From Ricordea florida (lineage: Eukaryota > Cnidaria > Anthozoa > Corallimorpharia > Ricordeidae): a stretch of 64,000 nucleotides of DNA. This document shows positions 3,167-62,000 of this stretch, in pieces (the stretch's first letter is position 1; the number at the start of each line of letters is the position of its first letter). The stretch is taken from NCBI GenBank assembly GCA_949710005.1, contig OX453276.1, positions 2,086,201 through 2,150,200 of the forward strand, given 5' to 3'. Both the position numbers and the translations under genes were made by a program. The notes under the pieces are model-generated. The model had not been told where the DNA came from. It searched no databases and saw nothing but the letters and a program-made list of their open reading frames with translations.

Positions 3167-4133
3167 TGTCCAATTTAACTGTCCTATTAAGGCTGAAATC
3201 AGGGCAGTTGATAGCCAATCAGATTTGAGAATTTTTTTATAGTTATGATTATACAAAAAATGGTACATTATCTTTGGATTCTCACCTTTTAATGTTTCAT
3301 AAACTGCAAAATTTAGTCCAATATATGGGGCAATTCCCTGTGAAAATAAATGTTTTTTTTAGTTTCCTTTTGGTTTTAATCAACCTATTTTTCTTAACTG
3401 AATTTTTGTTGGCTGCTGTCCACCTTCATCAGAGCTCGAAATCCAACACATTGTTATATTTCTAATGAAAGGCTGTCACGCCTTTTCTTGTCACTCACAG
3501 GCAAACTCGAAAAAGGCAAATCCAATTTCTCCCAACTGACAGGAGTCAAACCTACAACCTACCCATTACTAGTTTGGACGCTCTATCACTGAGCTACAGG
3601 ACACTCATGGTAGCAACGCCAACTAGGTTCATGGGACAAACATCCTGCATACTGCTAGGATTTGAATGTCAAAGCGGTGAAACAGTTGTTAAATTAAACG
3701 AACATGGTGAATTTTAGTAAAGGTAATCATACGGTTTCGAGTTCAATTTGGAATTAATTTGCACGAGTGAGTTTTTCAAAAAGCTGAAATTGCACGAGCC
3801 GCTTCGGCGAGTGCAATTTCAGCTTTTTGAAAAACTCACAAGTACAAATTAATTCCAAATTGAACGAGAAAAGCCGTATGATTATTTATTAATAATATAA
3901 ACATGAAAAAATTCACCTGGAGGAAGTGCTGGAAGATCTCATTGCGGACGGACAGGAAGTAAGCATTTGACGCGGATTTGACACGTTATTTACTGAAGAT
4001 CAACTGGTAACGCTACGAACTCAAAGCGGTTCGTTTAAAAATAAAGAATATCATAATCCAGAAAATCGATGTGTAATTTGCACTGGTGTTACACTTTTTG
4101 CACTGGTATTACACTTTTTGCACTGGTGTTACA

Positions 4134-4166
<33 letters not shown>

Positions 4167-7100
4167 GAGTAATTTTTTCATGTATATTATTATTTGTGAA
4201 AGATGTATCTTTTGGTACTGTCACAGGCAATGTTACTAATGCAATATCATGTAACTATGCAGTAACTATGAAAGTTCAGCAATCCCAATTATTTAGTCAG
4301 CTGAAAAAGTACAGTTCTAATTCTCATACCATAACAGTGGGAGCCAGTCCCTTGTAGAGACATCCACTGTGTAATCCACCCTCTTCTTTCAGTATCGTTC
4401 TAAATGCATGGAAAATATTGCTGTTGAAAAAAAAAGAAAAAAACAAACTGTTAGTCAAACTCAGAGCCTTATTTCTGAGGTTGAAGCTGACTCTTAAATA
4501 ACTTAAACTAAATATTATAATTATTGGTATTACTCATGCAGGCAATATCATCATAACTTATGGACTGTATCTAAGCCATCAAATTTCTGTGCACCTGTAT
4601 CTTCTCTCAGCACCTTCCCCCTGCGCAGCCAACCTTGTTCTAAAACAAAATAAAAAAAGATCATTTCTTTAAAGCAGGAAATAGTTTAGGTTATTGATGG
4701 TCACAATAAAAGGCTATTGAAGACAGCTAGAACCCTGGTAGAAATCCTACCCAGGATCCTGATTAGAATCTAAATCCTGGACAGGATCCTAATCCTATTT
4801 ACAGTAAGATCCTACAGGATCCTACGGAATCCTAAAGGATCCTGCAGGATCCTATGTACGATTTCTACCAGGAAATGACCAGGAGGAAAAGGAGAACAGG
4901 AAAGTGAGGCCAATCATGGTAAACAATGACAGGAAGTATCATAGTTGGTAAACTATACATCACTGATCGACTGGTTTTTACTTACAGTGTCTTATTACCC
5001 GACATTTACTTACACCTTGTAATTAAGCAACACCATTCATTGTGGGTACAAAAGAAGCTTCAAAGCCATGCCTGATCTGGCATCACCTTTGAAGAAGACA
5101 CTAGACAGGAGTGTTGAAACATCAGGTCGGTGGATTGTAAGTTTTTAAGTTACATTCATTAATTACTCTAAACCAGTGCAGCATCAAACTGTCTGATTGC
5201 CCAACTGGTGCACTGTGCACTTTTCCCTTAACTATGGTTCTTACTGTCTTACCTCACAAGATCCAGTGGATAGGTTGCCACCACAGATGTCATTCCAGCA
5301 AGACCACCTGCAATAAGGCGTCTCAGAGGAGTCTGCGCATGGGGATCCTCTGGGATTTTCAGCAGCTAAATGTAAATACAAACAGTAATTCAATAAAAAA
5401 AACTAAGAAAGACTGTAACAAGTCAGCATGGTGAAAAAATCACTCAATCAACACTCAGGGAGGTTTGAATCAGCTATCGGCTAATCAAGATGAATGAGGT
5501 CCATAAACCACAGGAAGCCCAGACTATTGAGTTCGACTGCAGATGTCTCACTTCCTTCAAGATGCAGAAAACAGATCAGATGCCTGCACAAAAGCTGATT
5601 AGTGAGACCCTATGAGGGGTAAATTCCGACACGTGACATGGCCTTGAGCCTGCGACACTGGAGCCACAAACTGACGATATGAATGACTTTCTCTCAGATG
5701 AGGTTTCAACAGGGAACATAAGAATCTTGCAAAATGCTGACATAGCTGATAATATTAATTTTTCTTTGAAACATATCAATCAGAGCAGACCACACAGCTG
5801 TAGACATAATGGTGAGCCTGAATTTGTCGACCCCATCGCCTGAAGACAACCAGCAGTGAGCGGTCAAAATGTCGCGATCAACATCCAGTGACTACATCAT
5901 GAATGACAAAAGAAGAATTTATATTATCATCACATTTTCCACGATGAACATCAACCCATTCCTTAATGCTGACATAGCTGCTAGTGAAATTCAGATGGCA
6001 GATATGGATACCCTCCCTAACCGGGCCTCATTGGTACACTTACCAGTGCATATGTTGTAGTTCAATTTTTTTTCTGGCTCCAAATTTTTTTGAACCAGTT
6101 TAAAATTCTTAAACTGGTTTGATTATTTTAAACTAGTTTCTTTTTTTTAATGGGTAATTTTTTGAAAGTTTTTCTACATTCTGTGTTCTATATTTCAGTC
6201 ATGAGAATTGTTACATGGGGTGATATACAAATATTATTTTTTACTCTTATTAATTAAGGGCTTATCATAATGATTGGGGTTAAGAGCTAAAGTTATGAAT
6301 GGTTAGGGTTAGGGTTAAGGGGTAAGGGTTAGGAACAAGATAGATTGTGGCATTGTACAGTTCGTCTTTATTTCATGAAATTACATTCTGCCAAAAAAGG
6401 TGAAATCCTCACATATATGTTAAATTTCAAAACATTTCATTAAACTATATAGCTTTCTTACATGCTGCAGAAAATGATAGCTCAGTTGTGTAATCGAGTT
6501 CAATGTTCTGAGATGTAACTGTGCACGGATACAAACGGGTGGGTGAAATCAATGTGTTTACTCTACCAAATTTGGTCACAACACGTGCATAAGTGTTAAC
6601 AATTTCTTCAATTTTTCCCAAAAGAAGGTTTGAATGAAGAGGTGATGTCTTGTCCACACGATCAATTTTAATGGAGACCATATCTCCTACTTGAAATTTT
6701 TTTTTCTAGCTTCATTTTTTTTCTGTGTTTGCTTGATCATTTCTTTATTATACTTTTCTTGATCTTCCATTATTTTTTGTCGCTTTTTGGGTGGTTCCTC
6801 TTCAACTTCATCCTGTAAATCTTCATGCTCTTCTGGATTTGTTTCATCATAAAATCTCTTTATCATTCCCAGAGTTAGCAGAATGAAAGACTTCTCTGTT
6901 GGGCTTCATGCCATACACAGCTTCGTATGGACTCATTTTTATTGCTCTATGGTAGCTTATGTTTCTAGTGTAAGCCGCTTCTTGTACTTTTTCACACCAT
7001 TTCTTTCGATTTCTGGAAGAGGTGCTCATTATTAAGGCTCTTGTGTCTTCTTTCCATGATCGATTTGATCTTTCGACCAAACCTTGAGTTGTAGGAGTTC

Positions 7101-8654
7101 GCGGAGAACCATGAGCAAGTTGAATGCCGTTTTCTTGACAAAATGCTTTTATCTTTTTGTTTGCAAATTCTCTTCCGTTGTCTGTTAGGATTTCTTTCGG
7201 AAAGCCATATGTGAAGCAGTGGTATGTGAATGCTTTCAGTACCTCATCCGCAGATTTATCTGTTAGAGCAGAAACGTGAACATACTTTGTATGGTGATCC
7301 GTAATGTTCATTACCCAGGTGTGTTTATGGGTACAATCACAAGCACAGTTACGGAAGTCCATTAGATCCATCTCGAGTAGAGAAAGAAATTTCGGAGATT
7401 GGATAGGTTTAGTAACAAGCTTAACACGACTCGTAATTGACTGCTGTTCCACGTGAATTGGACAAAGGCCAACAAATATGGCTATCACTTTAATGTTGAC
7501 TTCGGAATAGTTATTGTTTATCCATTTGGAAGTAATTTGTCGCCCACAATGAGCAGTGCGACTGTGAGCAAGAGATAGCACTTCATAAAGGTCCCTTTTA
7601 GGTACCACCTTTCTCTTGTTTGTAGTTATTATTGAGCCATCTGAGTAAGCCCATTTTTTTTCTAATAATTGTCGAGGTTTCCCACTTTGACGTCGTCACT
7701 TCTTGCGACTCGATTCCGAGTTTCTTCTCAGTTTGGTATTTTAGGAAAGCTTTTGCTTTATCGTAAAATGCATCCTCAATAAAGAGCGTTATCTGCGATT
7801 CCTTTTTAACTTGTTTGCTTTTTAATGCATCCAAGTGTTGGTAAAATATTCCCTTTGCAACGCATGGTTCGGTGGAGACTTCAGTCATGTTTTCAAGTCT
7901 CAATTTGTATTAAGTACGCATGCGCTACTCTATTTGAATATTTAATCAAATTGGCTGAGAGAGAAAGGGGGCCTGGGACTAATGAGTTGCTTTATAAGCA
8001 AGATTATGAAACCAATTTGCATCAAGTTCTTGTGTGGCTCAATGGTGATGAGAGAGGATTACAAGTCTGAAGGTTGTGGGTTCGAGTCTCAGTAAGTATA
8101 AGAAAAATAAGTGATAAAAGAATATTGTGTACATGACTTAGTAGGGGTAGTGAGTGTGTAAGAGTTGTACATGCAAAGTAAGGTGGTGGGTGGAGAGACA
8201 AGAGAACTGATAAAAAGTTAAGGGAGGGGAGTGACAGTCATAATTTAGTAATAACTTAAACTTTTATAATTATTAATTCTTTTCACCCCCCTAAAATGCC
8301 ATGCCCCTATTTTTTTACCTCACCCCAAAAGATAATAAATCCCTTTTCAGACAGGTGTTAAAAAACTGGTTTGAAAAAAATGGACTGGTTCAAAAAAATT
8401 GAACTGGTTTGGACACAATTAAACCACAGAAAAAAATTGAACTACAACACATATACTAACCCTTTTAAACTCCTCGTAAGCTGCAAACTGCACTGCAGAG
8501 TAGGGGATAATTCTGAGAACATTTGTACCATTGCCCTAAAAAGAAAACAATTGACATCACAATGAGGTACTGTAATCTTTCAATTTTTGTTAGTACCTGA
8601 TTTACAAAATTAATACAATAAACCTTTCCAACAATAATTATTGTTCCTTTTACT

Positions 8655-15973: not shown

Positions 15974-18900
15974 TCACCTTCTAGGCTTTCTTTTTAACTC
16001 TAAAAGTTTTATGTCTGAACTGTGATATACTGGGTCCTGTTGCTCTTCAGGGATTTCTTTGACTTCAAAATGCTCTTTCACAAGCTTTGGAAACAAATTA
16101 ACTATTAACAATTAATTGCAAAAGGTATTAATATTAATGTTAGAAATTGTCACAAAGTTAGATTTACCTTAAGGTGATGAAAAATGGTAGGGTTGTGGGA
16201 TGTGGCTTGAAATGACAACATCAAAATGTAATAAGGGTAAGTTGAAGCCACACATATGCGCACTGAGGCGACAGTGGTACAAGGAATAAAACCCTGTCAC
16301 CTCAGTGCGTATATGTGTGGTTTCAACTTACCCTTATTAGATTTATCTTAAGTTGAGCAAAGAGTTTGAAATGTCCTGCGGAGAATGCATGGTCTTGTTA
16401 ATGTTTGTGTACATAATATTTATTTATGTAAGGCAAGCCAAGAAGTTTCAACCTTGGATATGATCACAACAGTCTGGCTTAAACATGTACCTTTCACTTC
16501 TAAACTGGTTGGCTATAGCCTGACAGAATGATGCAAATACATGTATGTATTAAAACTTACTGTACCTGGAAAAATGTTTCTTGGAGCAAGGGTTTATTGC
16601 CTGTTGTTCTCTCTTCATAACTTATCAGAACAGTTGTGGTATTACTGCTTAGATCGCATAATGTGGTAACAAGAGGAACCAGTGACTGAAACATAGGTTT
16701 GTGGTAAAAGTTAAATTAGTCTTCTTTAATGAATTGTTTGTAGAACATTTGCCGAAAGTAAAGACATTCAGAATGGCTCAAGTTAAGTTTGCTGTTATAG
16801 CCATTGTTATAAACTTCCAAAAAGGATGAAAAATAGTTTGAGATAGCAGTATTTTCAAGATATATACGTTATTGACCAAGCATGAGGTCAAGATGGCTGC
16901 ATATTAACCCAGTTCTTTTTTTGCATTTTTACTGGCTGAGATGAAGTTGAGGTTGATAAAAATGCAAAAGAGAATGAGGTCAATATGCACCATATTGCCC
17001 CAAAAAGCTTGGTCAATAAAGGATTTATTATAATTATGGTCATTTTGCTTTGTTTGTTTTGCGGGACCACGCGGGAAATCCCGAGTGGGCCACATAGGCC
17101 CATCTTCCCTGCTTGGGTAGCCAATCAGAACACAAGATTTGTCTCTTCTTGCCCGCTTGCAGAACCATCCACATAATAAAACTGATCCTAGTAAATGACT
17201 AACAAAACAAGGGCAAAGCGAAAAATCTGGAAAAACGGCAAGTTCAAGACTGGCGCAAGGTTGGGCTTGATTTGATCTCAAAATTATCATTAACAATAAT
17301 TATGCAACTAGTAGATTTATGTATGACCAGAAACCCATAAGACTCACCTCTTCATAGTAAATGCAATCAGCAACTAACACGAAATCTGGATTCAATGGAA
17401 AACAGCTCACATCTTGACCCCTTAAGAAACCCATTATCAAAATTATTTAAAAAAATAAATACTACCATCTGTCATTAGGATAGTTCGACTATACACCTCT
17501 GATTTGATATGAAAGGGATGAACCAACTTCTATAATTTTAATAATAAAAATTAAAGAGACTACCAAGGACAAAGTTAACAATTTATTTTTGGCAATGTCA
17601 GCGTCAAACTCCCAACAGGAGTCTGTTCTTATGACCTTCTGATGTGTAATTATGGGGATCCTGGCACATTTGATAAACTAGGTGAGACGGGGCTCTTGCC
17701 CAAATTTTCATAAAGACTTCATCAAAGCCCCTACCAAGCCTCAACCAAGACCCCACCAAACCCTCAACCAAGCCATCACCAAGCCCTAATAAATACTTCA
17801 TCAAAGCCCCTACCAAGCCTCAACCAAGACCCCACCAAACCCTCAACCAAGACCTCACCAAGCCCTAATAAAACCTTCATCAAACATCCCAGGTGCGGAG
17901 CGCAACCAAACCCCTGCCAAACCATAGCTAATATGTTACAAAATCGATGTGAATATGATACGAGGATCTGGCACATTTAATAAAATAAAAATGATTTAAA
18001 AAGAATAAAATAATGATTTAATAAGAAGAAGAATTAATATACAAAATGGAACAAGAATTAAGAAGATTAAATGTTGTGCAACTGAAACATTTGGCTAGAT
18101 GGTATAATATTCCTGGCCGTTCACGTTTTATTAAAAGAGATTTTGTTCAAGCGTTGAGTAATATCCCTGAAATAACTAATAATATTCAACAAATTATTAC
18201 TAATATTGCTGGAATTGTTAATGAGTTACGTAATACACCAATGAGGCCAATAGATCAACCAAATTTACCTCTTCCAATTCCAAATATTGATCTGCCACCA
18301 ATAAGACCAGCAAATCAGCCAAATTTGCCACCTTTAACTATTCCTCAACCATCGCCTGGTTCACCAGATCGAATTAATCCAGATAGCCCGCCACCAGGCC
18401 CGCCACCTAATCGCCGACCGGGAACTCCACCAGGCCCGCCACCTAATCGTCGCGGAAGAGCTCCTCCGCGCCCGCCGCCACCTGTAATAAAAACAAAACA
18501 ACCACCAAAAAGACCACCTCCGCCCGTAATAAAACCAAAACAAAATACTTTTTTAGGAAATGCAATAAACAAGTTTTGGGGTGTAGTAAAACCATACATA
18601 CCTGAAAAAGTAAAAAATAAAGCAGTAGCGGCAAAAAATAAAGTAGAAAAAGTAGCTAAAAATTTTATAGAAAGATATAAAAAAGTAAATAAACCCAAAG
18701 AAATAAAAACACCACCTAAAAGTGATAATAAGAAAGGTGAAAGAAAAAATAATAGGGATTATGAGAAGGAAGGCGCAAGACCAAAAATATTAAAAAGAAA
18801 TGAGGAAAAAGAAATTGCAGAAGATTTTACACCAAGGGAATATGAATCAGCCATAAATGGTAATTATATTAGTTATAGGATTGAAGGAAAAGAAAAGATT

Positions 18901-21900
18901 GATGAAAAGACATTCTTACATAAAATAAAACCAAAAGTTATGGATTTACTTAGAAAGAGAGTTGAATCGAAAAAATCATTGAAGACTAAATTTATATTTT
19001 CATGCGAGTTCAAAAAATATGATCCTAAATATGGGGGTTTTATTACTAAATTTGTATACTGTGACGCATCATTTCCTTCTGAAAAATCAGAAATTGTTCT
19101 TGAATCAACAGATTTATCAGAATTATTTGATAGATTAACAAATCAACAACTTGAATTATTTGATGGTTTTATAAATAATGGATCTGGTTGGGAATTTGAA
19201 CGCGTACTATTCTTTGACATTTTTATAGATCGTTTTGTTCCACTTTTAGGAGGATCTTATATTCAATTACCAAAAGAATTGTTAAACAGGAATGCTATTA
19301 TTAACCCCAAGAATAATGATAATGAATGTTTCAAGTGGTGCGTAACAAGAGCCGTTTATCCAACTGATAAAAACCCGCAAAGAATAACTAAAGAATTAAT
19401 TGAACAATCAAAGAATTTTAATTGGAATGGAATTAATTTTCCAGCTTCTGATCAAGATGTTTTTAATTTTGAAAACCAAAATGATTATGATATTTCAATA
19501 TTTGGATATGATAAAAAAATAGGAGTATATACTATAAAAAGAAGTATGAAAAGAGGATTTAAACTGATTAGATTACTTTTATTAACAGAAGAAACAAATG
19601 AAGAGCCAAATAAACACTTTGTTTTAATAAAGAATATTAGTGCTCTTATACGAAGACAAGTTACTAAACGTAAATGTAAGTTGTACTTTTGTGATAATTG
19701 TTTGAATCCTTTTCATTTAAAAAGCACATTGGAAAAGCACGAAGGGTATTGTTATTTATACAAAGAAGCAAGGATTGATATGCTAAAAAATAAAGATGGT
19801 AGTCCGTGTTTTATTTCTTTTAAAAATTTTGTGAAAAAAATGAGAATACCTATTGTTGCCTATGCAGATTTTGAGTGTATTTTGAAACAAATAAAAAATA
19901 ATGAGTCTCTAGATAAAAGCAAAAGTTTTACAAATAAATATCAAACCCACAAACCAGTTGCATTTGGCTGTTTTATTAAGAGTTTTAATGAAAAAATATG
20001 TAAATCAAGATTTTATAGATATACAGCTAAATCTTCAGAAGATGATGTGGCACAGAAATTTGTTGAATATCTAGAGAAAGAATTTAAGGAAATTTATAAA
20101 AAATGTATTAGTTATAATGTAAAAAGATTCAAAAAGTTTAATAAGAAGAATATGACAGAAGATGAAAAAATAAACTATGAAAACGCAACTCATTGCCATA
20201 TATGTGAGAAAGAATTAGGCGAAGATAAGGTAATAGATCACTGTCATCTTACAGGAAAGTATAGAGGTGCGGCACATAATGAATGCAATTTAAATTATAA
20301 GATTCCAAAATTCTTTCCAGTTATAATTCACAATTTATCAGGATATGATGCTCATCTATTTATTAATAATCTTGCTAAAACAGAAGGTAAAATAAAACTT
20401 ATACCAAATAATGAGGAAAAGTATATTTCTTTCTCAAAAGAGATTGTGGTTGATACCTACAAAGATAAAGAAAGTGGCGAGATGAAATGTGTTAAGAGAG
20501 ATATAAAGTTTATAGATTCATTAAAATTTATGTCATCCAGTCTTGATAGTTTGTCTAGTAATCTTACTAAATGTGGAAAGTGTGATGTTTGTAAAGGTGT
20601 AATAAAAGGAAGTAGGTGTCTTAATCCGACAGATAAAAACCTACATGAAATTACAAAGTATTTTGTAGGCGAAGAATTAAAGTTATTATTGAGAAAGGGT
20701 GTATTCCCATATGATTATCTTGATGATTTTGATAAATTAAATGAAACCCAACTTCCCCCAAAGGAAGCGTTTTACTCAAAACTTAGCGGTAAAGATATTT
20801 CAGAAGATGATTACAAACATGCTAAAAAGGTATGGGAAACTTTTAATATGAAAACAATGAGAGATTACCTTAATCTATATCTACAGTCTGATGTGTTATT
20901 ATTAGCAGATGTTTTTGAAAACTTTAGAGATGTTTGCCAAACACATTATGGTTTGGACCCTGCTTGGTATTATACAGCACCCGGACTAGCTTGGGATGCA
21001 ATGTTAAAATTAACCAAAATTGAATTGGAGATGATAATCGACATTGATATGTTAATTATGATTGAGAAAGGCGTTCGTGGCGGAATAGCCCAAATATCAA
21101 ACAGATATGCTAAAGCAAATAACCCATACATGAAAGAATATGATCCTAAAATGGTTACAAATTATATACAATATCTAGATGCAAATAATTTATATGGTGG
21201 AGCAATGAGTAAACCACTACCCACTCATGATTTAAAATGGATACCAAAAGAAGATATTGAAAATTGGAGAAATATGCCATGTATATTAGAGGTTGATTTA
21301 AAATATTCACAACATCTTCATGATTTACATAGTGATTATCCGCTTGCCCCAGAAAGAATTAAGGTTAATAGGGTTGAGAAATTGATACCAAACCTCAACA
21401 ATAAAAAGAATTATGTTGTTCACCATGAAACTCTAAAAAAATATGAAAGTCTTGGATTAGAAGTAACAAAGATTCATAGAGGAATTACATTTGAAGAGTC
21501 TGAATGGTTAAAACCTTACATAGATTTGAATACTAAATTGAGAGCACAAGCGAAAAACGACTTTGAAAAAGATTTCTTCAAACTCATGAATAATTCAGTA
21601 TTTGGAAAAACAATGGAAAATCTTAGAAAAAGGGTAGATATAAGATTAGTAACAAATGAGAAAGATGCAAGAAAACTAATATCAAAAGCTAACTATAATC
21701 GCCGCACTATTTTTTCTGAAAATCTTATGGCAGTACATATGAATAGAACACATATAAAATACAATAAACCCATTTACTTAGGAATGTGTATTTTAGATAT
21801 AAGTAAAGCAATGATGTATGACTTTCATTATAATTATATTAAACCAAAATATGGTGAAAAAGCTAAATTACTTATGACAGATACAGATAGTCTTGTATAT

Positions 21901-24900
21901 GATATAGAAACTGAGGATTTCTATAAGGATATAAGCCCTGATGTTAGAGAAATGTTTGACACCAGCAATTACCCTAAAAATCATCCATCAGGTATTGAGA
22001 CGGGCGTAAATAAAAAAGTAATTGGTAAGTTTAAAGATGAAGCCGGTGGTAAAATAATAACTGAATTTGTTGGTCTACGGGCTAAGCTATACGCTTTCAG
22101 GATGGATGATGGTGATGAGATAAAAAAGGATAAAGGAATGAAGAAATCAGTTGTAGAAAATAGTATAAGATTTGATGATTATAAGGAATGTTTGGTTAGC
22201 AAAGTAAAGCAGATGAGAGAAATGCCAGTAATAAGAAGTTATAAGCATTTTGTTTATACTGAAACTGTTAATAAAGTTGCACTATCTGCTGATGATGATA
22301 AGAGAATCATTAAAGAAGATGGAATACATACTCTACCATATGGTCATTATCGGGCGGAGCCCTCCCCAGCAGAGCTGGATCTAACTAAAACAGAATTAGG
22401 AGGTAACTGCGTATCATAAGGAATAACTTGCAATTCTTCTCTTACAAATCCACGCCTCGGACCATCAGTCAAATAATATAAAACCGGTTGATTATGTGAA
22501 ATTATACTTTTATAAATATTATAAACTTTAATACTCCAAATAGGATCAGTAGCTCTCCTTTTTTCACCACCCTCAAGTTCGCCGGGAAATAATAAATATC
22601 TAACGTTAACATAAGGAGACAATCTAACCTCATCAAGACCAACAACTCGATTATACTTTTTAGGTTCAATATCAACCTCCTTCTGTTTTATAGATTTAAC
22701 AGGCTCTTTACCAGTTATTCTCGTTGGTGTATTATTCAAAGTTTTCAAAATATCTGGTAATCTTTTCACCCATACTCTTGATCGGGCATCACTTATCATT
22801 TCTTGCGCATATTGATGGCTAAATAATTTTTCACCTAATATTCTGTTTGCGTTTTCTACAAATGCTTGAGCTCTATGATTTCCAGCTTCACTTCTTTGAA
22901 TGTTTACATTATGATAATTCATAAGTTTAGTAACTTCACCCATAAATTCTTTTCCAGGATCAACCATTAATGTTTTTGGGTATTTTAACTTTCTAGAATA
23001 TATTTTTTCAAAAGCATTTGAAATTTCTCTACTTTCTTTTGAGGTTAATGGTTCAGCATCTTTATATCTTGATGCCACATCAACCACAACTAATGCATAT
23101 TTATATGTTTTTCTTCCAACTCTATCATGTGGTAAAAATAATAAATCTGCTTGGTTAATCTGATTAGGTTTATCTACAGTCCAGTGTGGTCTAGGTATAT
23201 ACTTTGGAGCTGGAAGATAGATTTGCCATATTGCTTGTTTCTCTAACCATTGTTTTGCTTCATCTTCACTTACTTTCGCCTTCTCAGCTAATTTAGGAAT
23301 TGCAGAATATCCTTTCCAATATCCTTCAGTTGAATAATATATTTTCGATAAAATGCTTTCGTTACTCATTTAAAGATTAACCAAAGTATCTTATAAATCA
23401 AATATGACGTCTGAAAAAATTAATCCAAATAGAATTCCTCGAGAGCCATTTGGGTTGAAAGCAGAATCAACTTTGAATAGAATTACATTAAATCCATCCT
23501 CGGCCAGCCCTGGAGAAACATTATATATAAATGTCCCTAAACTTTCTGATAATTTAGTGATTGTACCTGGAAGTGTATCTCTACTTTTCGATTTGGAAGT
23601 TGATGGGCATGCAAATAATACGGTTGTTAATAATTTGTCGGCCAATCTTGTAACCAGATTAAAAGTTCTTTTTGGAGGAGAAACATTGCAAGATACTCAA
23701 AGATATGATTTATTTCAAACATATCGCGATTTATTTTTAACCGCGGAAGAGAGAGAAGATAAATTAAAAAATGGCATTACTTCTTCTCTAAATATGAGAA
23801 AACTCAGAACAAAAGCTGGCGATGCAAAAACACAAGATGTAAAAGAAGTTGCTCTTGCTAATGTTCATGGTTCAAAGTATAGAATACCAATAAACCACCC
23901 AATTTTAAACGATCACGGCGTTTTTTACCCAAAAGCATTGGAAAATCATCTAATATTTGAGATTACACTCGCCCCAATTAATAATATTCTTATTTATTCC
24001 GATACAACAAAAGCGCCATCATATTCAATCAAAAACTTGGAGTTAGAATATTCTTCAATTTCAAGCGAATACTTAGCGCGCGAGGCGCAATCAACATATC
24101 AAGTTGGTAAAGGATTCTTTTATGAAAATATTACCTTACACAAAACTTTTACATTTTCTATTGGTGGTGATGGTGTTATTAATCAACATATTAATTTACC
24201 GAGAAGATCAATGACTGGGGTATTATTTTTGTTTTTAACACCTCAAGCTGCGGGGGCAAGGGATTCTGAAAATTTTTATAATCCTGGTATATCTTCTGTT
24301 GAAATTGATGTTGATGGTGTGCCAAATAGAATATACTCTAGAGGAATGATTCCATCTGATATTTGGGAATCCGTGAAAAAACGCTTTCATAGAGATGATG
24401 GTTTGCAAATTTCATTGAAAGAAAAGGATTTTTATGCAGATAAGTTTGCTCTTTGGGTTGATACTAGAACTCACCCAGATAATGGTATTCATGGGGGTGG
24501 ATTAGCTCTAAATAATACACATGATGGTGTAAAAATAGAAATTAAAAGGAAACAAAGCGGTTCAGGAACAATAACCTGCTATATGTTTGTTGTAGCTGAT
24601 GCAATGATGGAAATAATGAATTCAAGTTTGAGATCAATTAAGTACTGAGAATCTAAAAACATAATGTTATGATACAAAATCATGGAAGAACTACGAGAAA
24701 AAATACCATTCCACTGTATCATAACCGGACCAACAAATTGTGGGAAAACAAAGTACCTAATTGAACAGCTACGAGGGTCTTTCCGAAAAATTTTTGATTA
24801 TATTGTTTTAATTTGCCCAACCTATTCCAAAAATAAAACCTATCATAATTTTGCTAGAGGAGATAAACGTTTCTTTGTATTATCACCCGATGCCAGTAAC

Positions 24901-27900
24901 ATTGATGAGATTAATGAATTGTTAAATGATTGTCAAACTTTATTCTCTGGAACAAACACATTAATAATTTTAGACGATTGCGCTGTATCTAATGATTTGA
25001 AGAAAAGATCAAACAAGTTTATAGATTTAGCATTCTCCGGAAGACATCATGGTTTATCAGTTTGGGTTCTCACTCAGCAATTAACATCAATTGCAAAACC
25101 ATTCCGAGAAAATGTAGCTTGTGTTGTTACTTTTCATAATCCGTCACAGAAGGGTATGAAGATGTTTTTCGAAGATTATGGAGGTGATTTGGATTACGAA
25201 TTAGGTAAAAAGTTTATGCATCTCCTGAAAACTGAAAAATATTCTAGGCTATGTTTAAGTTTGCGATACCCATTTAATTGCTATTTGGAAGTCCCAAACG
25301 GGGAATAACGATTTAAAAATAATCCATGTATTACCACAAAAGATGACAGAAGTTGATCGAGCGAAGCTCTCCCCGGCAGGGCCGGAAGATTATATTGAAG
25401 AAGAAAATACTGTAGGAAAAACAGACCGACCGCAGGGAGGATCGGGAAAAGACAATGTAAAATCTGATGATATTGAAATAAAACAAGAATCACTAGCTAT
25501 TCTAGCAGCTCTTGGAACCACAAAGGAATATTTGGGTGTTGAAATGAGTTTGGGGGATATAAAAAAATTATCAGAAAAAGATGTAGAAAAATATTTTAAT
25601 CGATATCAAGCGGTAATGGGTAAAAAAATTAACGGTGGATTGGTAGATTCATCCCTTCAACTAGTTTCTAAAATTATTTCTTACATGGTTCCTGTGGATG
25701 ATATTGATGCACTTTGTAAGGATTTGAAGAATGATGATTTAGTTAATCGCGAACTGACAAACATTGTAGGGCTCTTAGCATTGAAAGCAGGAAGATTGGC
25801 AGCACTTGCTAGCGGGCTGTTCCAGGTTGCTAAACACATAAAATTCAACAAAAATCAACAAGTTTCAAGGGCAATTACAGATAATGCTAGCACAACTGAG
25901 CAGGATACTAAGCAAGATGCTAACGGTATTGATACTGTTTACTAAGCATTATGTGATTGATTTAAAGATTTCTTAATGATATGAAAATAATGTCAGAAGA
26001 AGTTGTTGAGCAAATTACAAGAGATCCTCCAAAAGAAGAGGAAAAAACTGCGGGAAAAAAGGCAAAAGATCCTAAAAAAGTAGCAGCTGGTAAAAAATTA
26101 GCTGAATATAATAAAAAAGCAAAAGAAGCGTTAGCTAGGGAGACCCAACGAACAGCGGAGCAAATGAAACGTGAAGAAAAAATGAAACAGGAAGAAGAGA
26201 CTAATGAAGATGGCGAATCAAAAGCAAATCGAAGCTGGCTACCAGAGTTATCTTTTACTACTGTTTTATCTATTGTTGGATTAGGTTTTACAGCATTTTA
26301 TCTTTTTATGAGATATCAGGAAAAAGCTAGAGATTGGTACACTGAATATAAAAATAGGATACCAGATTTATCACAAGTTCCAACACAACCTTTTCAAGCC
26401 CCGCCCATAAAGATTCATAATCCACAACCCACAGATAGACCAAAAATTGGAATGATTTAATTTAATCTCTTAAAAGTTATCTAAAGATTTCTTACTGATG
26501 TAGTAAAAAATCATGTCAACCGAAAATAAACTTGTGAAAACTGTTACTGATTCAGCAGTCCTTATTGGATTAGCAGCTGGTGTTGGATATGTTGCTAAAA
26601 AAGCAATGAAAGAATCATTTATGAACGACCCATCCTCAAGTATTACAAATTATGCAAAATGGGTTGCTGTATTATCGGGTAGTATGTACCTAAAAACATA
26701 TTTAGAGGAACAAAAGATACTTCCAAATTAACGAATATAAAAATGGCATCAATAGCATTTATGATTGGAGGAGCAGTATTAAATGCAACAGCTTTTGTTG
26801 GTGGAAACTATCTTGCAAAATATTTATCAGGAAAAAATGTTGATACAGAAAAAATAAGACACGATAAAGCAATGGAAAAATACCAAAGAGATTATGCGGA
26901 ATATCAGAAAAATAGACAGAAACTAATGGATTGGAAAATAAAGAAAAAAGATGAAAAATATCAAGCATCAAAAAATATTTCAACTACAAATGAACAATTT
27001 GCATTATATGAACAAATGCAAGAACCTAAATTTTCAGATTATTATAGACCCAGCGACAATCAAAAGATGGGCGAAATGGTATATGTGGGTGGTGGTATGT
27101 TGGCATTGGGTTATATGGCCAGTAAATTATTTTAGGTAATTGTATGCGATTAGTTTAAAGATTTCTTACTGATGAGTAAAAAATCTAAATATGGCAGAAG
27201 GAGGATATTTACCAGAAGATTTTGATCCAACTGAACTAAATGAAACAAAAGATGATGATGATGATAATGATATTGATGAACAAAATATGGAATTGGATAC
27301 AATATCATCAACCACTCGTTTAATTAACCAAGATGATGAGCGGGAGGAGGAGGCAGAAACATCGTTTGGTGGTGTTAATGAAAATGATCCTCTTTTTAAA
27401 AAGATTAAAGAAAAAAAAGAAGCTGAAGATGATATAAAAATTGTATATCCAAAACCAAAATTTCAACATATTATAACATTTTTACAAAATGTTGGGAAAG
27501 GAATAAAATTACCAGCAATTAAATTACCAGGTAGAACTAATTCGGCTACATATGTTCTTAGAGGTGGTGAATTTAGAAATCTTAAAAGTGGAGCTAAACT
27601 TCGTGATGGCCAACTAAAAAATGCTTTAGGACCAAGAGCAGAAGATATTATTGAAGATAATGATCGTGAGGTTGAAAAGATAAAAGAATCACAAAATAAA
27701 AAGAAGGAGGAGAAAAAATTCATTGAGGATAAACCATTGAAAACGCCAGAGGAAAGAGCAAGAATAGAGACTTTAGATAGAGAAATTGCTGATGATGATA
27801 ATGAAATGGCTGCTAGGGATCGCGAGAGTGAGCAAATCCGAGAAAGAATGTCATTACGAGAGCGAATTAAAGCAATATTCAAAAAGTATGGTTTTACAGT

Positions 27901-30900
27901 CTTTGCTGTTGTGAGTGCTGTTGGTGTTATAATTGGGGTTATAGTTTCTAATCTTTCAAAAGGATTATCTACTTTAGGAAAAGGTGTAGGTAATGGGTTG
28001 AAAACTCTTGGTAAAAAACTGGGTGAAATATTACCAGGAATGGTTGGTGCGATTGTAAGCTTTCTATTCAAAACAGCTGGGCAGGTTATTGGATTTTTAG
28101 GTAAGAATGCCTGGCTTTTGATAATGGCTGTGGTTCTATATTTTGTGGAAAGTATAAAAAAGAGAAAGTAACAAATTTAAAGATATCATGCTGTTCAGTA
28201 AAATACAATATGGATGAATACAATAGAATTTACCCTGGATTGTCTAATAATCCTGATCCTATTAATTTCAGACTGCAAAAATCAAGCGAAGTATTACAAA
28301 ATCTTGAGAAAGAAATTAGACATTACGAAGAAGTAAGAAAAAAATATAATAGAGCTAGAGGAATATTTACAAAAATAAGTGTTTGTGGCGGTATGATTTC
28401 AGTTATTCTATCTGCAAGCGGTTTAGGAACTTCTCTTACTGGTTTTGGTGCTGTTGTTGGTGTGCCTTTGGGTGTTGTAGGTGGAGTTTTTGGCGGATTA
28501 TCGGTTGGATTTGGTATTGCTGCTAAAAAACTTTCTCATAAAGTTAGCAAACACGAACAAACCACCGCAATTGCAAAATCAAAATTAAACACCATTAACG
28601 ACTTGGTTTCAAAGGCATTGAAAGATAATGTTATATCTGATCAAGAATTTTCCATAATTTTAGCAGAGTTGGAAAAGTTTCAAAAACTAAAACTAGAAGT
28701 TCGTCAAAAATTTAGGAGAGATACAGAAAAAAACTTAAACATGTCTCAGATAAGAAGAGAAGTTCGTGCAGATCTATTAAAAGAGTTAACCACTCCCGCT
28801 CATTAAAAATTTCATATGAAAGAACTGATGTGGGTTGCAATTGTTTTGCTAGTATTAGAAAAGAAATTAATTAATACTTTACATCTTATTCTTAATCTAA
28901 AGACCAGATTATCTGGAACACAAAGAATAAGATGTTATTAAACGACTTCAAAAATAGATATCCAAGCTCTAATCTTGATAAATTTACATTTGTGAATGAT
29001 TCATATGGAGGATATATTAAGTGGAAATATAATGAGATGACTGTCATGTCTAATGATGATCCTACTGGAAAAACATGGACTGATGGTCTATCACCTAATT
29101 TGAAAAAACTTTTATGGAAGGATTTAGGGTTAAGTTTGCCTGATGTAGTTTCATCTTTCCCAAAGAGTTTAACCATGACTAACCAAAGTTATCCTATACC
29201 GGCTATTAACTTTGATGACTTTACAAGTGATATAACAAAAATGCTAACCTCACTAGATATATATGTTTCAAATACAAAGAAATTCACAGCTCTAATGAGA
29301 AACATATTTACAAATCAAATTGTAACTTTCAAATCTGGAAAACAAAGCAAGAAATGGTTGAACTCACAAGATTTCAATTACTGGCCGCAGCAACTTAACT
29401 TTGCAGTTTGGTGTGCAACATCTGGTTGTGGTATAAGTCCTTTTGAGAGCCTAAATTACCCCAAAGTAGTTAATAGCTTCATTAAGTTTCATATATATTT
29501 TACAATAAGGCGGATATTATATGAATTAAGTCTTCCCCTACCCGATGAGCAACCATTTGTAATAAACAATAATCCATATAGTAAAGTAGCATATCAGCGT
29601 TTGTGTAAAGAGTTTGGAATTAGTAATACAGAAGATTTTAGGTTTAAAATTGGAACAAACAATGGATTGGGAGATATATTTTATAAATACGATGAAAGTT
29701 CACCTAAAGAAAACCAATATCCTGGTGGTGATAATAAATTTTCAGATGACCTAACTGAGAGAGAAAAAACTGTTGCTAAAGGATTACAAAAATTTTTAAA
29801 AAAGGACGCAGACTATAATCATGTTAAATTAATTTCATTTATTCGTAATGATGTCTTTGGTGATTACAGATATGCATGGTTTATTCCAACAAGTGGACAT
29901 GGACTCACTAAAGCTGGACTCGGTAGATTGAATAGATCCGCTGAGGCTTTTGTTTATTGTATATTAGGTGCACAAGTTAACACTAGAAACTCGATTTATG
30001 GTAACGGTGGTGGAGCAATCGAGACACAACAAGAATTCTTAGCTTTATTTGAAAGTAGCGTGATTGTGAATGACATTTCTAGTTCTATCCAAAGATATCA
30101 ATTAGCTGTACAAGAAGCGAAATTACGGCTTGATTTAGCTATTGCTCCAGGTTTGTGGTTGATGCCGAGTAATATGATTATAAATACGGAGAGCGTGACC
30201 GGATATAATAACAAACTTATGAAAGCAACTAATGATATGAAATTTGGGGTGAATAATACCCTAAACACCGAAGCAAAACAGGTCGGAATAAGTCATAACA
30301 TGGGATCTTCAAAGTTAAAGTTACCTCATTCAATAGTTGAGACAAATCCGAAACCAAAAATCCCTCCAACGCAAAATGAAAAGTCGGTCAAAGACTCATT
30401 CCCGCCGCGCGTAAAGTCGGACGTGACTACGCAACATGAAGATAATATATTAGCATTTATAATTGTCTCTAGTGTATTTGCGTGGTATCTATTTCGGTAG
30501 TTCATGACTATTTCACGTGATTATCATTGTTTTTGGATTAGTGTTCACGTGTAGAACAATAGATTGCATACTTTTACGACATAGCAACAAGCAAAATGTA
30601 AAGTGGATTTGAAATCGAAAAGTAGATTTTATGTTTACTTCAAAAAGGTCGGTTTCTAACGTCGCTCAGGAATGTGATTACGTCAATGATGTAATCAGAT
30701 CTAAAGACCAGCTTCGCTGAAAACAAAAATGTTAAGCATTACCATGTACGAGTCTGAAACAAGGATTTATTTAGATCCTCCGCTGAAAAATCTTCGGGAG
30801 ATACAACTCCTGGATTGTAATATACAAACCAAAAGATTGATTAATTTCAAGGAACAACAGATATTGTTTAATGATGAGAATCAACCACTAATAATAATAC

Positions 30901-33900
30901 AACCCGGTACATATTCGTTGCGTGATATTCAATCGATCTTTCTTAATGATACAGATAAGGCAAAGATAACAATCATTGAGACAGACACTGTTGACTATCT
31001 ATATTCAAATAAGAACTTCAAAATAAAACTTACGAGAGGGCTAGCGGTTGGTTTAGGTGTGACTGAAGTTATAAATCCTGGTAAATTATACCCTATAAAT
31101 ATACAGATTAAGGAACCACTGAGACTTATGTGTAGTATAGTGGATAATAAGTCATCATATATGAATAAAACCAAATATGGGGAACTTGTTAAACTCTCAC
31201 CATCGCACCTACTTGCAAACATACCCACAAAGGATTATCCAACAATCCCAGTTCGAAAATATGATAGCGTTATAAATCATTTTGATTTAAGCATATTAGA
31301 TGTTGAATGGAAAAAACTTGATCTGATGGGTTCTCCCATAACTTTTAGTTTAAGATTTAGATAAATTTTTGTTATGTAACCATTATTTAGGTTATATAAC
31401 TTAATTAATCTTCGCCCCATAACTCTTTCAAAAACTTTAACTCCTCGATATCAACAATCCAATCTAAATATCTACTTGGATGCCATGCTACAACCATTAA
31501 ATCATTATGTAAATCTTTGTAAAATTTATTTTTATGTAATACTTTATATGTTTTTGTATATACACTTACCCAAAAAGAATCAATAATAACTTTTTTATTT
31601 ACTAAAGCTTCTCTAAATTCTTTTGATTCTTCCCTATCCATTAAAAAATCATTGCTTTTTTCATCTTTGGGGAATATAACACTCATATCAGAGATTGGTG
31701 AAAAAGCAAAACAATAATAATACTTATTACCACAAAAATTACTATTAACATGAGTGTAATTAATTTGAAACTCTACTATTTCTCTTTCACCCATATTCTC
31801 ATATTTAATAGAAAGTGCTTTTGATAATGTGTATAAACAATCTTTTTTTATTAATCTTAAAAAATCCATATTATTAATTTTTTCATTGTTAAAATATTCC
31901 AAAGTAAAACCAAAATCTAAACATTTTTTTATTTTCCTCTTATATTTTTGTCTTTCCATCTTTTTTTTTATTTTATTTTATATATTTAAATCATTTTTAT
32001 TTTTTAATTTTATTCTACATTCCTTACAAGAAGCTTTCTGTTTACCATGTTCACATATTTGCGATCCTCCACATTCTTTACATTGTTGTTTTTGTTTATT
32101 ATGTACGCAAATTTGAGTGCCTTTACATTCTTTACAACGATATTTAACTTTCCCATGTATACATATTTGTGATCCACCGCATTCTTTACAAATATATTTA
32201 ACTTTTCCATGTACACATATTTGTGCTCCTTTACAACTTTTGCAAAAATATTTAACATTATCATGAATGCATATTTGAGGCCCTCTACATTCTTTGCAAA
32301 AATATTTATGTTTTTCATGTATGCAAATATAAGGACAAGTAGTGGTGACTTTTTCAATTAAATTTATAATTTTTTCTTCTTCAAACTTTTTAAACTCATT
32401 AATAAAATCTTCTCTTAAATATAGTTTTGATCTTCCTTTAATTTTTAAATAACTCGCAATTCTTTTCAAATTTGTTTTAGTCAAAGTTTCTAATTTTTCC
32501 ATCTTTAATCATTATTTTATTCTTTTTAAATCATTTTTATTTTATTAAATGTGCCAGATCCTCGTATCATATTCACATCGATTTTGTAACATATTAGCTA
32601 TGGTTTGGCAGGGGTTTGGTTGCGCTCCGCACCTGGGATGTTTGATGAAGGTTTTATTAGGGCTTGGTGAGGTCTTGGTTGAGGGTTTGGTGGGGTCTTG
32701 GTTGAGGCTTGGTAGGGGCTTTGATGAAGTATTTATTAGGGCTTGGTGATGGCTTGGTTGAGGGTTTGGTGGGGTCTTGGTTGAGGCTTGGTAGGGGCTT
32801 TGATGAAGTCTTTATGAAAATTTGGGCAAGAGCCCCGTCTCACCTAGTTTATCAAATGTGCCAGGATCCCCATAATTACACATCACCTTCCAATCGCTAG
32901 TTCAGATGATTGACCACTGAGCTATACGAGACTTGTGGGAATTAGGACATTGGTTTGGGCCACGGGACAAACATGCAACATGCTGCTGGGACATGAATGA
33001 CAAAGTTTGCCTGGGACAGTGCCCAAAAATACATCTTTCACAAATTCTCCAGGCTTAAAATATACCACTTCCATTATATCACAAGGGCAAAGGTAACTTA
33101 CAAATGGTCTACCCACCATTCCAGTATTTGAACTTCAAGTTTTCCTGTGATCATGTGCTGGTTAGCAACTCTGTTTATTTCTATCAGTGGAACGACCTCT
33201 GGCAAGTCAGTACAGCAGACATCAGCTCTGAGGTAGTGGAATACAAGTAAGTCATCAATAAGTTAAATTTAGTTCACTGACTGGTACACTCTTATCACAT
33301 CTTTAAAAATGCATAAGAAATTAAAATATTCAAAATAATATAGGTACAATAATATTTTTTTTGCGTTTAATTGTCCAAGGCATTTTATATAGTGCATTTC
33401 CGAGAAGAGCTGTTATTGATGTTGATTGACACTTTGACAATTAGCCATGGTTAATAGGTTCTCAGACAGTGAGAATGTTGGGTTAAATCAATACAACATC
33501 CTCGAGTTGGTAGCTAATCATTATGTTTTTGGTAATTGCTATGAATGGCAAATTCAAAGGTTTCGGAAGGCTTCAAGATAAGATTTCCGTACAGGTCCCT
33601 ACTTCATTATGCATTCTGTACCTATACCATTTCGTTCTTCGATCACAAGAAATATTTGCACGTGTATTACACCACACAAGACAGCTACAGCATGCATAAT
33701 GAAGTAGGGACCTGTGCGGAAATCTCACCGGCTTCAACAAAACTCGGAATTCGTCGGGTTTCTTCGAATATTGTCGAGGCACTTTCGGAAATCTGTTTCC
33801 TCTGGTATAAAAAATCTCGTGTTAAGCCAACGACTGAATATATTGGGTAAATGTTTTGATGCATACCCACAGCAGGCCGCCACAAGCCCAACAACTCCAG

Positions 33901-59000: not shown

Positions 59001-62000
59001 TTTTCGTTTTTTCCCGGGAAGCAAAACAGAACAAAATGGTCATGTAATAAATCTCTTGACTTAGCTTTTATGGTCAAGATGGCTCCATATTGGCGTCGCA
59101 TCGGAGCTCTATAGAAATAGGCAAAACGTTCTTTTGCTGGAGAGATTGGTCATTGGATTTTTCAGTCGATAGGTACTCAAGATTGTAAAATAAAAACTAA
59201 GCAGATAGCGAGTAGTGAAAGAGTAGGTGTCCCGATTTTATGTGTTAGGGATTTAGAGAGATCTGCAGAAACGTTCCTGTGAGTGAAATGTGAACTAACC
59301 TGGGAGTGAAGAACAAAAATATGGATATTCTTTCCGCGCGGGTTTAGTTCATATGGCTCCAATTTTTCGTACATTTCTTGGATATCTGCCATTCCTGAAA
59401 TCAAAGGTAAAGAGAAATTAAAAAAAAACACAGAGACATTGTTTTTACCGTTTTGACCGGTTGTAATACGTTACGTCGAGTTAAGTTACGTTACGTTACG
59501 TTGAGTTAAGTTGTCTTTCGTTGTATCTTACACGTGACATAACGTTACTAACATGCATAACGATACATTACCGGGCAGGAAGACAAGTGTAGTTTCTCCT
59601 GGTTTTGAAAATGTCGTTATAAGCTTTTCGCCAACCTCAAGGAGGCCATCTTGAATTTGTGGCCAAGGATCTTTTGATCGTTGTTTTCTGACTGCAAAAT
59701 TAATCGCCCCCATGTCCATTTCTCGATCTGAAAATAATGATTAGTTTTAACTTGATATGTTCAGAATTCTACCTTTTCAAAGTAATCTAGGGAAACCTCA
59801 GAACATTCATGTGAGGGTCTTATTGATTTGGGCAGAGAAATCATGCAGTTAACTTTGGCTGCTGTTGTTGGTGTTGGTGTTGGTGTCATTGTTGTTATTG
59901 TTGGTTTTGTTGCTGCTGTGACTATTGTTGTTGTTACCGTTGCTGTTGTTGTTACTGTCGTTGTTGGTGTTGTTATTGTTGGTGTTGTTGGTGGTAATGC
60001 TGATGTTGTTAGTGGCGGTGTTGTTGTTGCTGTTGTTGGTGTTGTTGTTATTGTAGTTGTTGGTGTCGTTATTGCTGGCGTTGTTATTGTTGGCGCTGCT
60101 GTTGTTGGTGTTGTTGTTATTATTATTGTTGTTGTTATTGTCGTTGTTGCTGTTGTTGTTATTGCCTTTGTTGTTGTTGGTGTTGTTAGTGTTGTTGGTG
60201 GTGCTGTTGGTGTTGTTGTTGGCGTTGTTGGTGGTGCTGTTGGTGTTGTTGGCGTTGTTGTTGGCGTTGTTGTTGGTGATGCTGTTGGTGGTGTTGTAAT
60301 TGCTGCTGTCGTTATTGTTGGCGTTGCCGCTGTTGTTGTTGTTATTGGTGTAGGTGGTTTTGTTGGTGTTGTAATTGTTGCTGTTGTTATTGTTATTGTT
60401 GTTGGTGGTGGTGTTGTTGTTGTAGTTGTTGTTGATGCTACTGTCTGCTTGTTGTTGTTGCTGTTTCTGTTATTGTTATCGTTATTTTTGCTGTTGTTGT
60501 TGCTGTTGTTGTTGTTGTTGTTTTGTGTTGTTGCTGCTGATGCTGTTGCTGTTGTCTGCTTGTTGTTGCTGCTGTTGTTGTTATTCTTGTTGTTGCTGCT
60601 TTTTTTTCTGTTGCTGTTGCCGTTGTCACTACTGTTACTGCTAAACATAAGTACACGAACGAGGAAAGAAAGTGAAACCGGCACAATTAAAATAAATTAA
60701 TCAACGCAGGAGCTACTGATGACAAACCTTTTAAAATTTCGGGACGGTTAACTGTACGAATGTGCTGTAAAATAGTTCCCGCTAGATCGGGTGAAGTTTT
60801 AGCGTCGAAAGAAATCCAGGCCTTTGCGATGCTTTTTATTTCTTTGGTGCTCAATGCAGCGGTCAGATCCCTCAGCCGCAGAAACTCTTCCAAATAGATT
60901 TCATCCACGGGGTATCTGCGAGCTCCTACAAAAATTGGCTCTGGAATTGAAGCTTTTCTCCGATGGGTATCGACCGCGGCAGACTCTGAGAAATATCTAC
61001 AAGGCAAGTTGAAGAGAAAATCACATATGCACAGTGCGGTCTTAATATAGGGCTCTGTGTGGTTGGGTATTCATAAAATCCTAAGTACGTTTCTTCCGTT
61101 TAAACCATTATATGAAAGTAACACCGAGTTTCATAGCTATGTGAGAGGACCGGTGCTACACTTGGATTTAACTCTACTGGCTGCTAACTTCGGTAAAAGC
61201 ACAAAACAAAGAGCCCTTGAAAAAAATTCAACAAGCAACTCAAGCAACGTTTATGCTTTATTTACTTATAGTAAAAGACAAATTAGAGCTGCATTACTCA
61301 CTATTAGCTTAAAACAACTGATTTATTGTTTGTGTGTGTGTGTGCTTCGCTCTGGTTCAAAATGGCGTCATGAGCCAACTAAAGCTCACGTCACATGCTC
61401 ATTGGCTGAGAGCACGTCAATTAATCCCAAACAGTGCAGAAAATTAAAATTGAGTGCAAAAAGTTGAAATTGAGTGCAGAAAGTTGAAATTGAGTGCAGA
61501 AAGTAGAAATTGAGTGCAAAAAGTTGAAATTGAGTGCAGAAAATTGAAATTAAATTTTTGCATGTATATTATTAACAAGTAATCACATGATTTGTCTCGT
61601 GCAATTTGGGATAAATCAGCACTCGTAAATTTTTCAAAGACTACAAATCGGGCTCGTGCAATTTGGTTAGCCTTTGAAAAATTTACTCGTGCTGATTTAT
61701 CCCAAATTGCACTCGAAATCATGTGATTACCTATACAAATCACACTGTTAATTAATTAAGCATCAATCTGATTACACCAGTGCATAGACATCAAAGCTTC
61801 TGTACGCACCTGGAGAATAGTTTCCCCTGCAATGTGGCTGACATCACTATCACCTTAGTTTTGCACTGCTGTGCCATACATAACTTGATAACGAGGCTAA
61901 GTAAATCTGAGTCAATTTGCCGCTCGTGTATCTCGTCCAATATCACGTGACTATACCGCTGGAAAAAGTTCGGCCTGCTAACGAGGAGCTGGGAAGGAAA

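What the first reader, a model, noticed from the sequence alone, without database searches (positions are those of the whole stretch)
17640..32885. Apparently intact, recently inserted Polinton with a full virus-like gene set
The sequence shows 379-bp inverted repeats without visible differences, a CCTTC target duplication, and uninterrupted frames for polymerase, integrase, capsid, ATPase, penton and about eight further genes. Polintons are usually found decayed in animal genomes (established knowledge). Identical repeats and no disabled gene suggest recent integration, and perhaps an element still able to move or form particles (inference).
Basis: partly seen in the sequence, partly recalled or inferred. 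Interest (0 to 1): 0.88.

Follow-up and report, generated by a model that had tools for sequence, protein, structure and literature searches.

The report
Virus-like elements swapping polymerases, sharing capsids
A 15-kilobase virus-like element sits unbroken in this (likely animal) genome, which holds at least a hundred open copies of its shell gene, and comparing 18 of them shows near-identical shell genes paired with very different DNA-copying enzymes and end sequences, most likely because the elements exchange parts.

Summary
In detail: inverted repeats identical over 379 bp, a 5-bp target duplication (CCTTC), and 14 open genes. The insertion splits a tRNA-like repeat; another copy of that repeat in the window is uninterrupted. 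The element is Polinton-like in the broad sense (polymerase, rve integrase, double-jelly-roll capsid, ATPase, likely penton) but departs from classical Mavericks: no protease was recognised, and the family leaves 5-bp, not 6-bp, duplications (14 of 17 copies with recognisable repeats).

It is not a lone intact relic: 101 of 101 scored capsid-gene copies in this genome are open (6181 first-look candidates, the rest unscored). I compared 18 copies, picked by capsid similarity. Three classes of ends follow the polymerase and integrase trees at the minimum number of changes, but not the capsid tree. In one class the polymerase is only 29-31% identical to this one, although the capsid is 94-95% identical; in the three such copies mapped, DNA homology begins at the same base, between the convergent polymerase and integrase genes. 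I read this as exchange of an 'ends plus polymerase' module against a shared integrase-capsid module. A motif, ATYTAAARA, precedes 10 of 14 genes. Whether any copy moves or makes particles is untested.

The parts
17635..17639 (.). left copy of the 5-bp target duplication CCTTC
17640..18018 (.). left terminal inverted repeat, 379 bp, starts TGATGTG; holds 2.2 copies of a 79-bp repeat and the motif before the polymerase gene (17994)
18046..22419 (+). predicted protein-primed B-family polymerase, 1457 aa: SAP-like N-terminus, OTU-like Cys/His motifs (C428, H524), exonuclease motifs, endonuclease VII insert (704-749), palm motifs A/B/C
   Evidence: motifs; Endonuclease_7 E 2e-6; no Pfam polymerase model matched
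22347..23369 (-). rve integrase, 340 aa; likely catalytic residues D75, D137, E172; no chromodomain match
   Evidence: best NCBIfam match IS481 transposase E 1e-9, below cut-off
22387..22387 (.). base at which DNA homology to three ACTACT-ended copies (c9, d1, d10) begins; none found on the polymerase side of it
23404..24648 (+). major capsid protein, double jelly roll, 414 aa
   Evidence: 101 open copies in the genome
24682..25308 (+). packaging ATPase (Pox_A32 family), 208 aa
25343..25945 (+). 200-aa protein, unknown
   Evidence: open in 8 of 8 copies
25981..26460 (+). 159-aa protein with a predicted membrane segment
26513..26731 (+). 72-aa small protein, preceded by the gene-start motif
   Evidence: no Pfam match
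26743..27135 (+). 130-aa protein with a predicted membrane segment
27191..28171 (+). 326-aa protein with two predicted membrane segments
28210..28806 (+). 198-aa protein with predicted membrane segments
28932..30500 (+). 522-aa strongly conserved protein of unknown function
   Evidence: 754 homologues; no Pfam or PDB match
30729..31364 (+). likely penton / minor capsid protein, 211 aa
31405..31959 (-). 184-aa protein, unknown
31978..32502 (-). 174-aa protein: SAP-like N-terminus resembling that of the polymerase, then Cys/His zinc-ribbon-like repeats
32507..32885 (.). right terminal inverted repeat, 379 bp, ends CACATCA
32886..32890 (.). right copy of the target duplication CCTTC

Best explanation
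The stretch 17640-32885 is an inserted 15,246-bp Polinton-like DNA-virus element with all 14 predicted genes open, one of a family with at least 101 open capsid-gene copies in this genome, in which an 'ends plus polymerase' module and a shared integrase-capsid module have been recombined, likely by exchange between elements. How it would work: the polymerase is predicted to copy the linear element from its ends (protein-primed, from motifs and family knowledge; untested); the integrase is predicted to join the ends to the target with a 5-bp stagger (the 5-bp duplications are shown); capsid, ATPase and likely penton would build a particle (untested). Shown: polymerase and integrase sequences go with the class of ends; capsid sequence does not. 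Inferred: a polymerase and integrase must match the ends they act on, so these stay together, while the capsid packs any element and passes between classes; the junction between the convergent polymerase and integrase genes is a boundary where such exchange has happened at least once.
For: Insertion and duplication. Family: 101 of 101 scored capsid copies open, 93-100% identical (6181 candidates). Ends: 21 copies examined; three had a masked side, one had no repeat found, 17 had repeats; 14 of 17 have a perfect 5-bp duplication at matching ends, against 0 of 272 left/right pairs from different copies. Classes of ends (TG 4, AG 7, AC 5; c6 and d3 unlabelled) were named before the trees: integrase tree 2 changes, the minimum, shuffled mean 7.7, 0 of 200 as low; polymerase piece 2 changes, 0 of 200 as low; capsid tree 6 changes, and each class as one clade is rejected (p-AU 7e-54 TG, 1e-59 AG, 4e-4 AC). 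Polymerase piece against the window: TG 88-96%, AG 68-75%, AC 29-31% identical, the last still homologous (E 1e-16, 27%). Same junction, base 22387, in 3 of 3 AC copies mapped, against none in the AG and TG copies mapped. All 18 integrase, 18 capsid and 17 of 17 polymerase pieces read were open.
Against: Copies were chosen by capsid similarity, not at random. In the integrase tree the TG group has support 50/95 and AG is not one clade (2 changes; p-AU of one AG clade 0.28, not rejected). The three AC copies may share one ancestral swap, so the common junction may be a single event. The capsid tree has few strong branches, and its labels are not wholly random (23 of 200 shuffles as low). The gene next to the right end (174 aa) does not follow the class: TG copies d6 and d8 are 54% and 52% like the window's, no nearer than other classes, c2 96%. 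c2, c4 and d3 lack a perfect duplication. Open frames do not show expression.
Confidence: 0.75

Rival explanations
1. It is a classical Maverick/Polinton that happened to insert recently; the differences from other copies are ordinary divergence within one vertical family.
For: Gene set and size fit Mavericks (mean 16.9 kb, repeats 46-1447 bp, PMC8097293, passages); intact Mavericks are known there (134 in 17 vertebrate species).
Against: 5-bp duplications in 14 of 17; no protease recognised; polymerase 29-31% but capsid 94-95% identical in the AC copies with a sharp junction cannot come from one rate of divergence.
Confidence: 0.1
2. The mosaic arises among integrated, dead-end copies: gene conversion in the host chromosomes keeps capsid genes alike while polymerases and ends diverge, with no exchange between replicating elements.
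For: Many copies lie in one genome; conversion can homogenise single genes (general knowledge). One search shows only the mixing, not when it happened.
Against: The mixed copies have nearly identical repeats at both ends and clean duplications (for example c9, AC class, 0 differences in 376 bp), so each moved after it was mixed. Related elements in other assemblies show gene-tree conflict as well, though there contig identity is inferred from equal contig length.
Confidence: 0.2
3. The AC copies are assembly chimeras.
For: Not excluded by reads; none were available.
Against: Five AC copies lie at five places on five contigs, each with matching ends and a 5-bp duplication.
Confidence: 0.03

Closest known systems
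Meldvirus Meld23486 (PMC11071296, preprint; passages seen)
   Different: Its sequence was not compared here; the paper passages do not describe families of copies in one genome, classes of ends or duplications.
Maverick/Polinton of vertebrates (PMC8097293, passages)
   Same: Size, inverted repeats, polymerase, integrase, capsid genes, ATPase; intact copies exist.
   Different: 6-bp duplications and AG-type ends there; 5-bp and three end classes here; no protease recognised here.
Cnidarian Polintons (PMC10120064 passages; PMC4028283 passages)
   Same: Cnidarian capsids were the only metazoan ones outside the main Maverick-Polinton cluster, and the Hydra one matched only PBCV-1 VP54; the capsid here likewise looks giant-virus-like.
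   Different: Host not named here; no cnidarian Polinton sequence was available to compare.
Fall armyworm Mavericks (PMC5803895, passages)
   Same: Polymerase with a predicted recombination endonuclease VII domain; Poxvirus A32-like ATPase.
   Different: Their integrase has a chromodomain match and they list a protease; neither was recognised here.

Membership tests
Polinton/Maverick (strict) | 6-bp target duplication | tested here: not met
   perfect 5-bp duplication in 14 of 17 copies with repeats; the 6-mers found are palindromes inside the repeats, except a 7-mer one base off in c9; 6-bp rule from PMC8097293
Polinton/Maverick (strict) | protein-primed B-family polymerase | tested here: inconclusive
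   exonuclease and palm motifs in order; no Pfam polymerase model matched; priming not testable
Polinton/Maverick (strict) | rve integrase | tested here: met
   PF00665 E 6e-9, above cut-off
Polinton/Maverick (strict) | double-jelly-roll capsid protein | tested here: met
   model mean pLDDT 68; Foldseek and VIA rows are double-jelly-roll capsids; the tight alignments cover the N-terminal half
Polinton/Maverick (strict) | penton (single jelly roll) | tested here: inconclusive
Polinton/Maverick (strict) | packaging ATPase | tested here: met
   PF04665 E 1e-11, above cut-off
Polinton/Maverick (strict) | adenovirus-like cysteine protease (found in 74% of Polintons, PMC4028283) | tested here: inconclusive
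   no protease family in Pfam at E up to 1 among the 17 frames (including the 13 genes); distant ones could be missed
Adintovirus (definition in PMC11071296) | polymerase with N-terminal OTU-like domain | tested here: inconclusive
   Cys428 and His524 motifs read by eye; no domain match
Adintovirus (definition in PMC11071296) | integrase with C-terminal chromodomain | tested here: inconclusive
   Pfam reports rve and a weak DUF6140, no chromodomain
Adintovirus (definition in PMC11071296) | hexon recognisable by BLASTP to adintovirus hexons | not tested
   no reference hexon at hand

The most novel reading that the evidence does not exclude
The genome carries a freely mixing population of virus-like elements with one common shell: several unrelated replication systems, each with its own matching ends and integrase, compete for packaging in the same capsid lineage, and new combinations keep arising and inserting.
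Probability: 0.35. Interest if true: 0.82.

Novelty: new variant of a known kind. Interest (0 to 1): 0.62.

Why it matters
Whether Polinton-like elements in animals still live as viruses is an open question. A genome with many young copies, in which capsid and replication modules have been mixed and the mixed copies then inserted, makes it testable by observation: insertion differences between individuals, expression, and protected DNA in particles. The tie between ends, polymerase and integrase gives a direct handle on what each enzyme recognises, and the 5-bp duplication separates this lineage from classical Mavericks.

Tried and rejected
Led nowhere: five scans of viral contigs with capsid, capsid alignment, 522-aa alignment, penton alignment and polymerase found no relative. 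PDB sequence searches gave no meaningful relative of polymerase, capsid, ATPase, integrase, penton, the 522-aa protein or the AC polymerase piece. PHROGs and NCBIfam added little. IS481EU was considered because the integrase's best NCBIfam match is IS481, below cut-off; its duplications (about 4, 15 or 25 bp, abstract) do not fit. A polymerase/giant-virus capsid 'chimera' as such is not new (PMC11071296), and Polinton capsid models have been called more similar to giant-virus capsids before (PMC10120064), so I do not claim it. In the structure searches no family outside the listed rows is excluded.

Rejected: that the 6-bp matches are duplications (palindromic hexamers inside the repeats; 6 of 272 mismatched pairs also gave one). 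Weakened: the gene-start motif as a rule for all copies. It stands before 10 of 14 genes here, but I defined it after seeing the upstream sequences, one of three scrambled motifs also placed 2 of 6 hits there, and in 8 copies a looser form precedes the capsid gene in 6, the ATPase in 8, the 200-aa gene in 2 and the integrase in 0. The cross-assembly conflict used clades named after the distances were seen and contigs equated by length.

Not in print: I searched ten times and saw listings; I read passages of ten papers and the outline of an eleventh. None of those passages describes the class-matched ends or the 5-bp rule, but PMC8502044 and PMC10748475, likely the most relevant, are not held, so I make no strong claim of priority.

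Full report
Observation. The repeats at 17640-18018 and 32507-32885 are identical over 379 bp and the element is flanked by CCTTC on both sides. The host flanks joined without the element align with a second, uninterrupted copy of the same repeat at about 3528-3674; that copy matches the tRNA model weakly (E 0.002, below the gathering score). So the element lies inside a tRNA-like repeat. This is one site, and I do not claim a target preference.

Family in this genome. The window lies in a genome of 538 Mb. The capsid protein has 101 scored matches there, 93-100% identical, none with a stop; the first look had 6181 candidates and only the best were scored, so decayed copies are not counted. 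I fetched both ends of 20 other copies: the next ten by capsid score (c2-c11) and ten more taken down the list by hand (d1-d10). Three had a masked side and c6 gave no inverted repeat. With the window, 17 copies had repeats, and 14 of these have a perfect 5-bp duplication next to matching ends: window, c3, c5, c7, c8, c9, c10, d1, d4, d5, d6, d8, d9, d10. In five of them (c8, c10, d4, d5, d8) the true end lay 1-15 bases off the BLAST end. c2, c4 and d3 have none. Of 272 left/right pairs from different copies, 0 gave a 5-bp match. Mismatches between the two repeats are 0 in window, c8 and c9, one without gaps in c3, c5, c7, d6 and d9, and up to 27 of 417 in d4: insertions of many ages, several very young. 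Vertebrate Mavericks have 6-bp duplications (PMC8097293, passages).

Classes of ends. The ends fall in three classes: TGATG (window, c2, d6, d8), AG (c3, c4, c5, c7, c8, d4, d9) and ACTACT (c9, c10, d1, d5, d10); c6 and d3 are unlabelled. Over the first 300 bp, 25 of 42 same-class pairs and 4 of 94 different-class pairs share detectable similarity (d3 counted with the AC class).

Who travels with whom. I then read integrase and capsid from 18 copies (all 36 frames open) and built trees. The integrase tree needs 2 changes of class, the minimum (shuffled mean 7.7; 0 of 200 as low), with AC at 100/98 support, TG at 50/95, and AG not one clade. The capsid tree needs 6 (23 of 200 shuffles as low), and each class held as one clade is rejected (p-AU 7e-54, 1e-59, 4e-4). 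Capsid and integrase start only 34 bp apart. A piece of the polymerase from 17 other copies, all open, again needs 2 changes, with TG at 98/100 and AC at 100/100. Against the window this piece is 88-96% identical in TG, 68-75% in AG and 29-31% in AC copies, the last over residues 1150-1431; c9's piece is nevertheless homologous (27%, E 1e-16). The capsids of those AC copies are 94-95% identical to the window's.

Junction. In the three AC copies mapped (c9, d1, d10) DNA homology with the window begins at base 22387, inside the overlap of the convergent polymerase and integrase genes, at 79-82% at once; integrase DNA is then 86-87% and capsid DNA 90-91%, and nothing is found on the polymerase side. 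AG copy c5 and TG copy d6 are homologous through the same point. The penton does not follow class either (AC 81-87%, AG d9 80% and d4 52%, TG d6 58% and d8 83%), nor does the 174-aa gene at the right end.

Reading. Polymerase and integrase act on the ends, so selection would keep them matched to the ends; the capsid has no such tie. That this follows from recognition is inferred. The mixed copies carry nearly identical repeats and clean duplications, so they moved after being mixed, which favours exchange between replicating elements over conversion among dead copies. One ancestral swap may underlie all AC copies.

Expression signals. ATYTAAARA occurs 12 times in the element (both strands), 10 of them 21-52 nt before 10 of the 14 genes; 20000 random placements never gave more than 4; it occurs 3 times in the other 48754 nt, and in 1 of 220 coding 60-mers. 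The motif was defined on these sequences, and its conservation in other copies is uneven. The repeats carry it toward both the polymerase and the 174-aa gene, whose N-termini resemble each other (score 65; 0 of 2000 shuffles reached it, maximum 40).

Host. No name is given. PAN-domain proteins and a lysine methyltransferase fit an animal; a cnidarian is my guess from gene content and from the passage that cnidarian capsids stand outside the main Maverick cluster (PMC10120064).

Verdict. A new variant of a known kind: a Polinton-like family with 5-bp duplications, class-matched ends, polymerase and integrase, and a capsid lineage shared across classes. Intactness alone would be ordinary.

Noticed in passing
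   Followed up: yes
17710-17884 and 32641-32815: Both repeats contain 2.2 copies of a 79-bp unit with an 11-12-bp inner period, possibly a binding array.
   Followed up: no
18046-18200 and 32350-32502: The polymerase and the 174-aa protein, the outermost genes at either end, share a similar SAP-like N-terminus, as if the repeats once reached into the genes.
   Followed up: partly
28932-30500: A 522-aa protein with 754 relatives and many invariant residues has no known family or fold.
   Followed up: partly
3528-3674 and 32886-33010: Two diverged copies of a tRNA-like repeat; the element sits in one, in its tRNA-like part.
   Followed up: partly
6847-7695: Fragment of a retrotransposon-type integrase (rve E 4e-13), unrelated to the element's.
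   Followed up: no
P0001-P0300 (contigs of other assemblies): Related elements elsewhere: penton and 522-aa trees conflict (one pair 100/100 in one tree, rejected at p 9e-10 in the other).
   Followed up: partly
59863-60595: Long imperfect TGT repeat of 243.7 copies.
   Followed up: no
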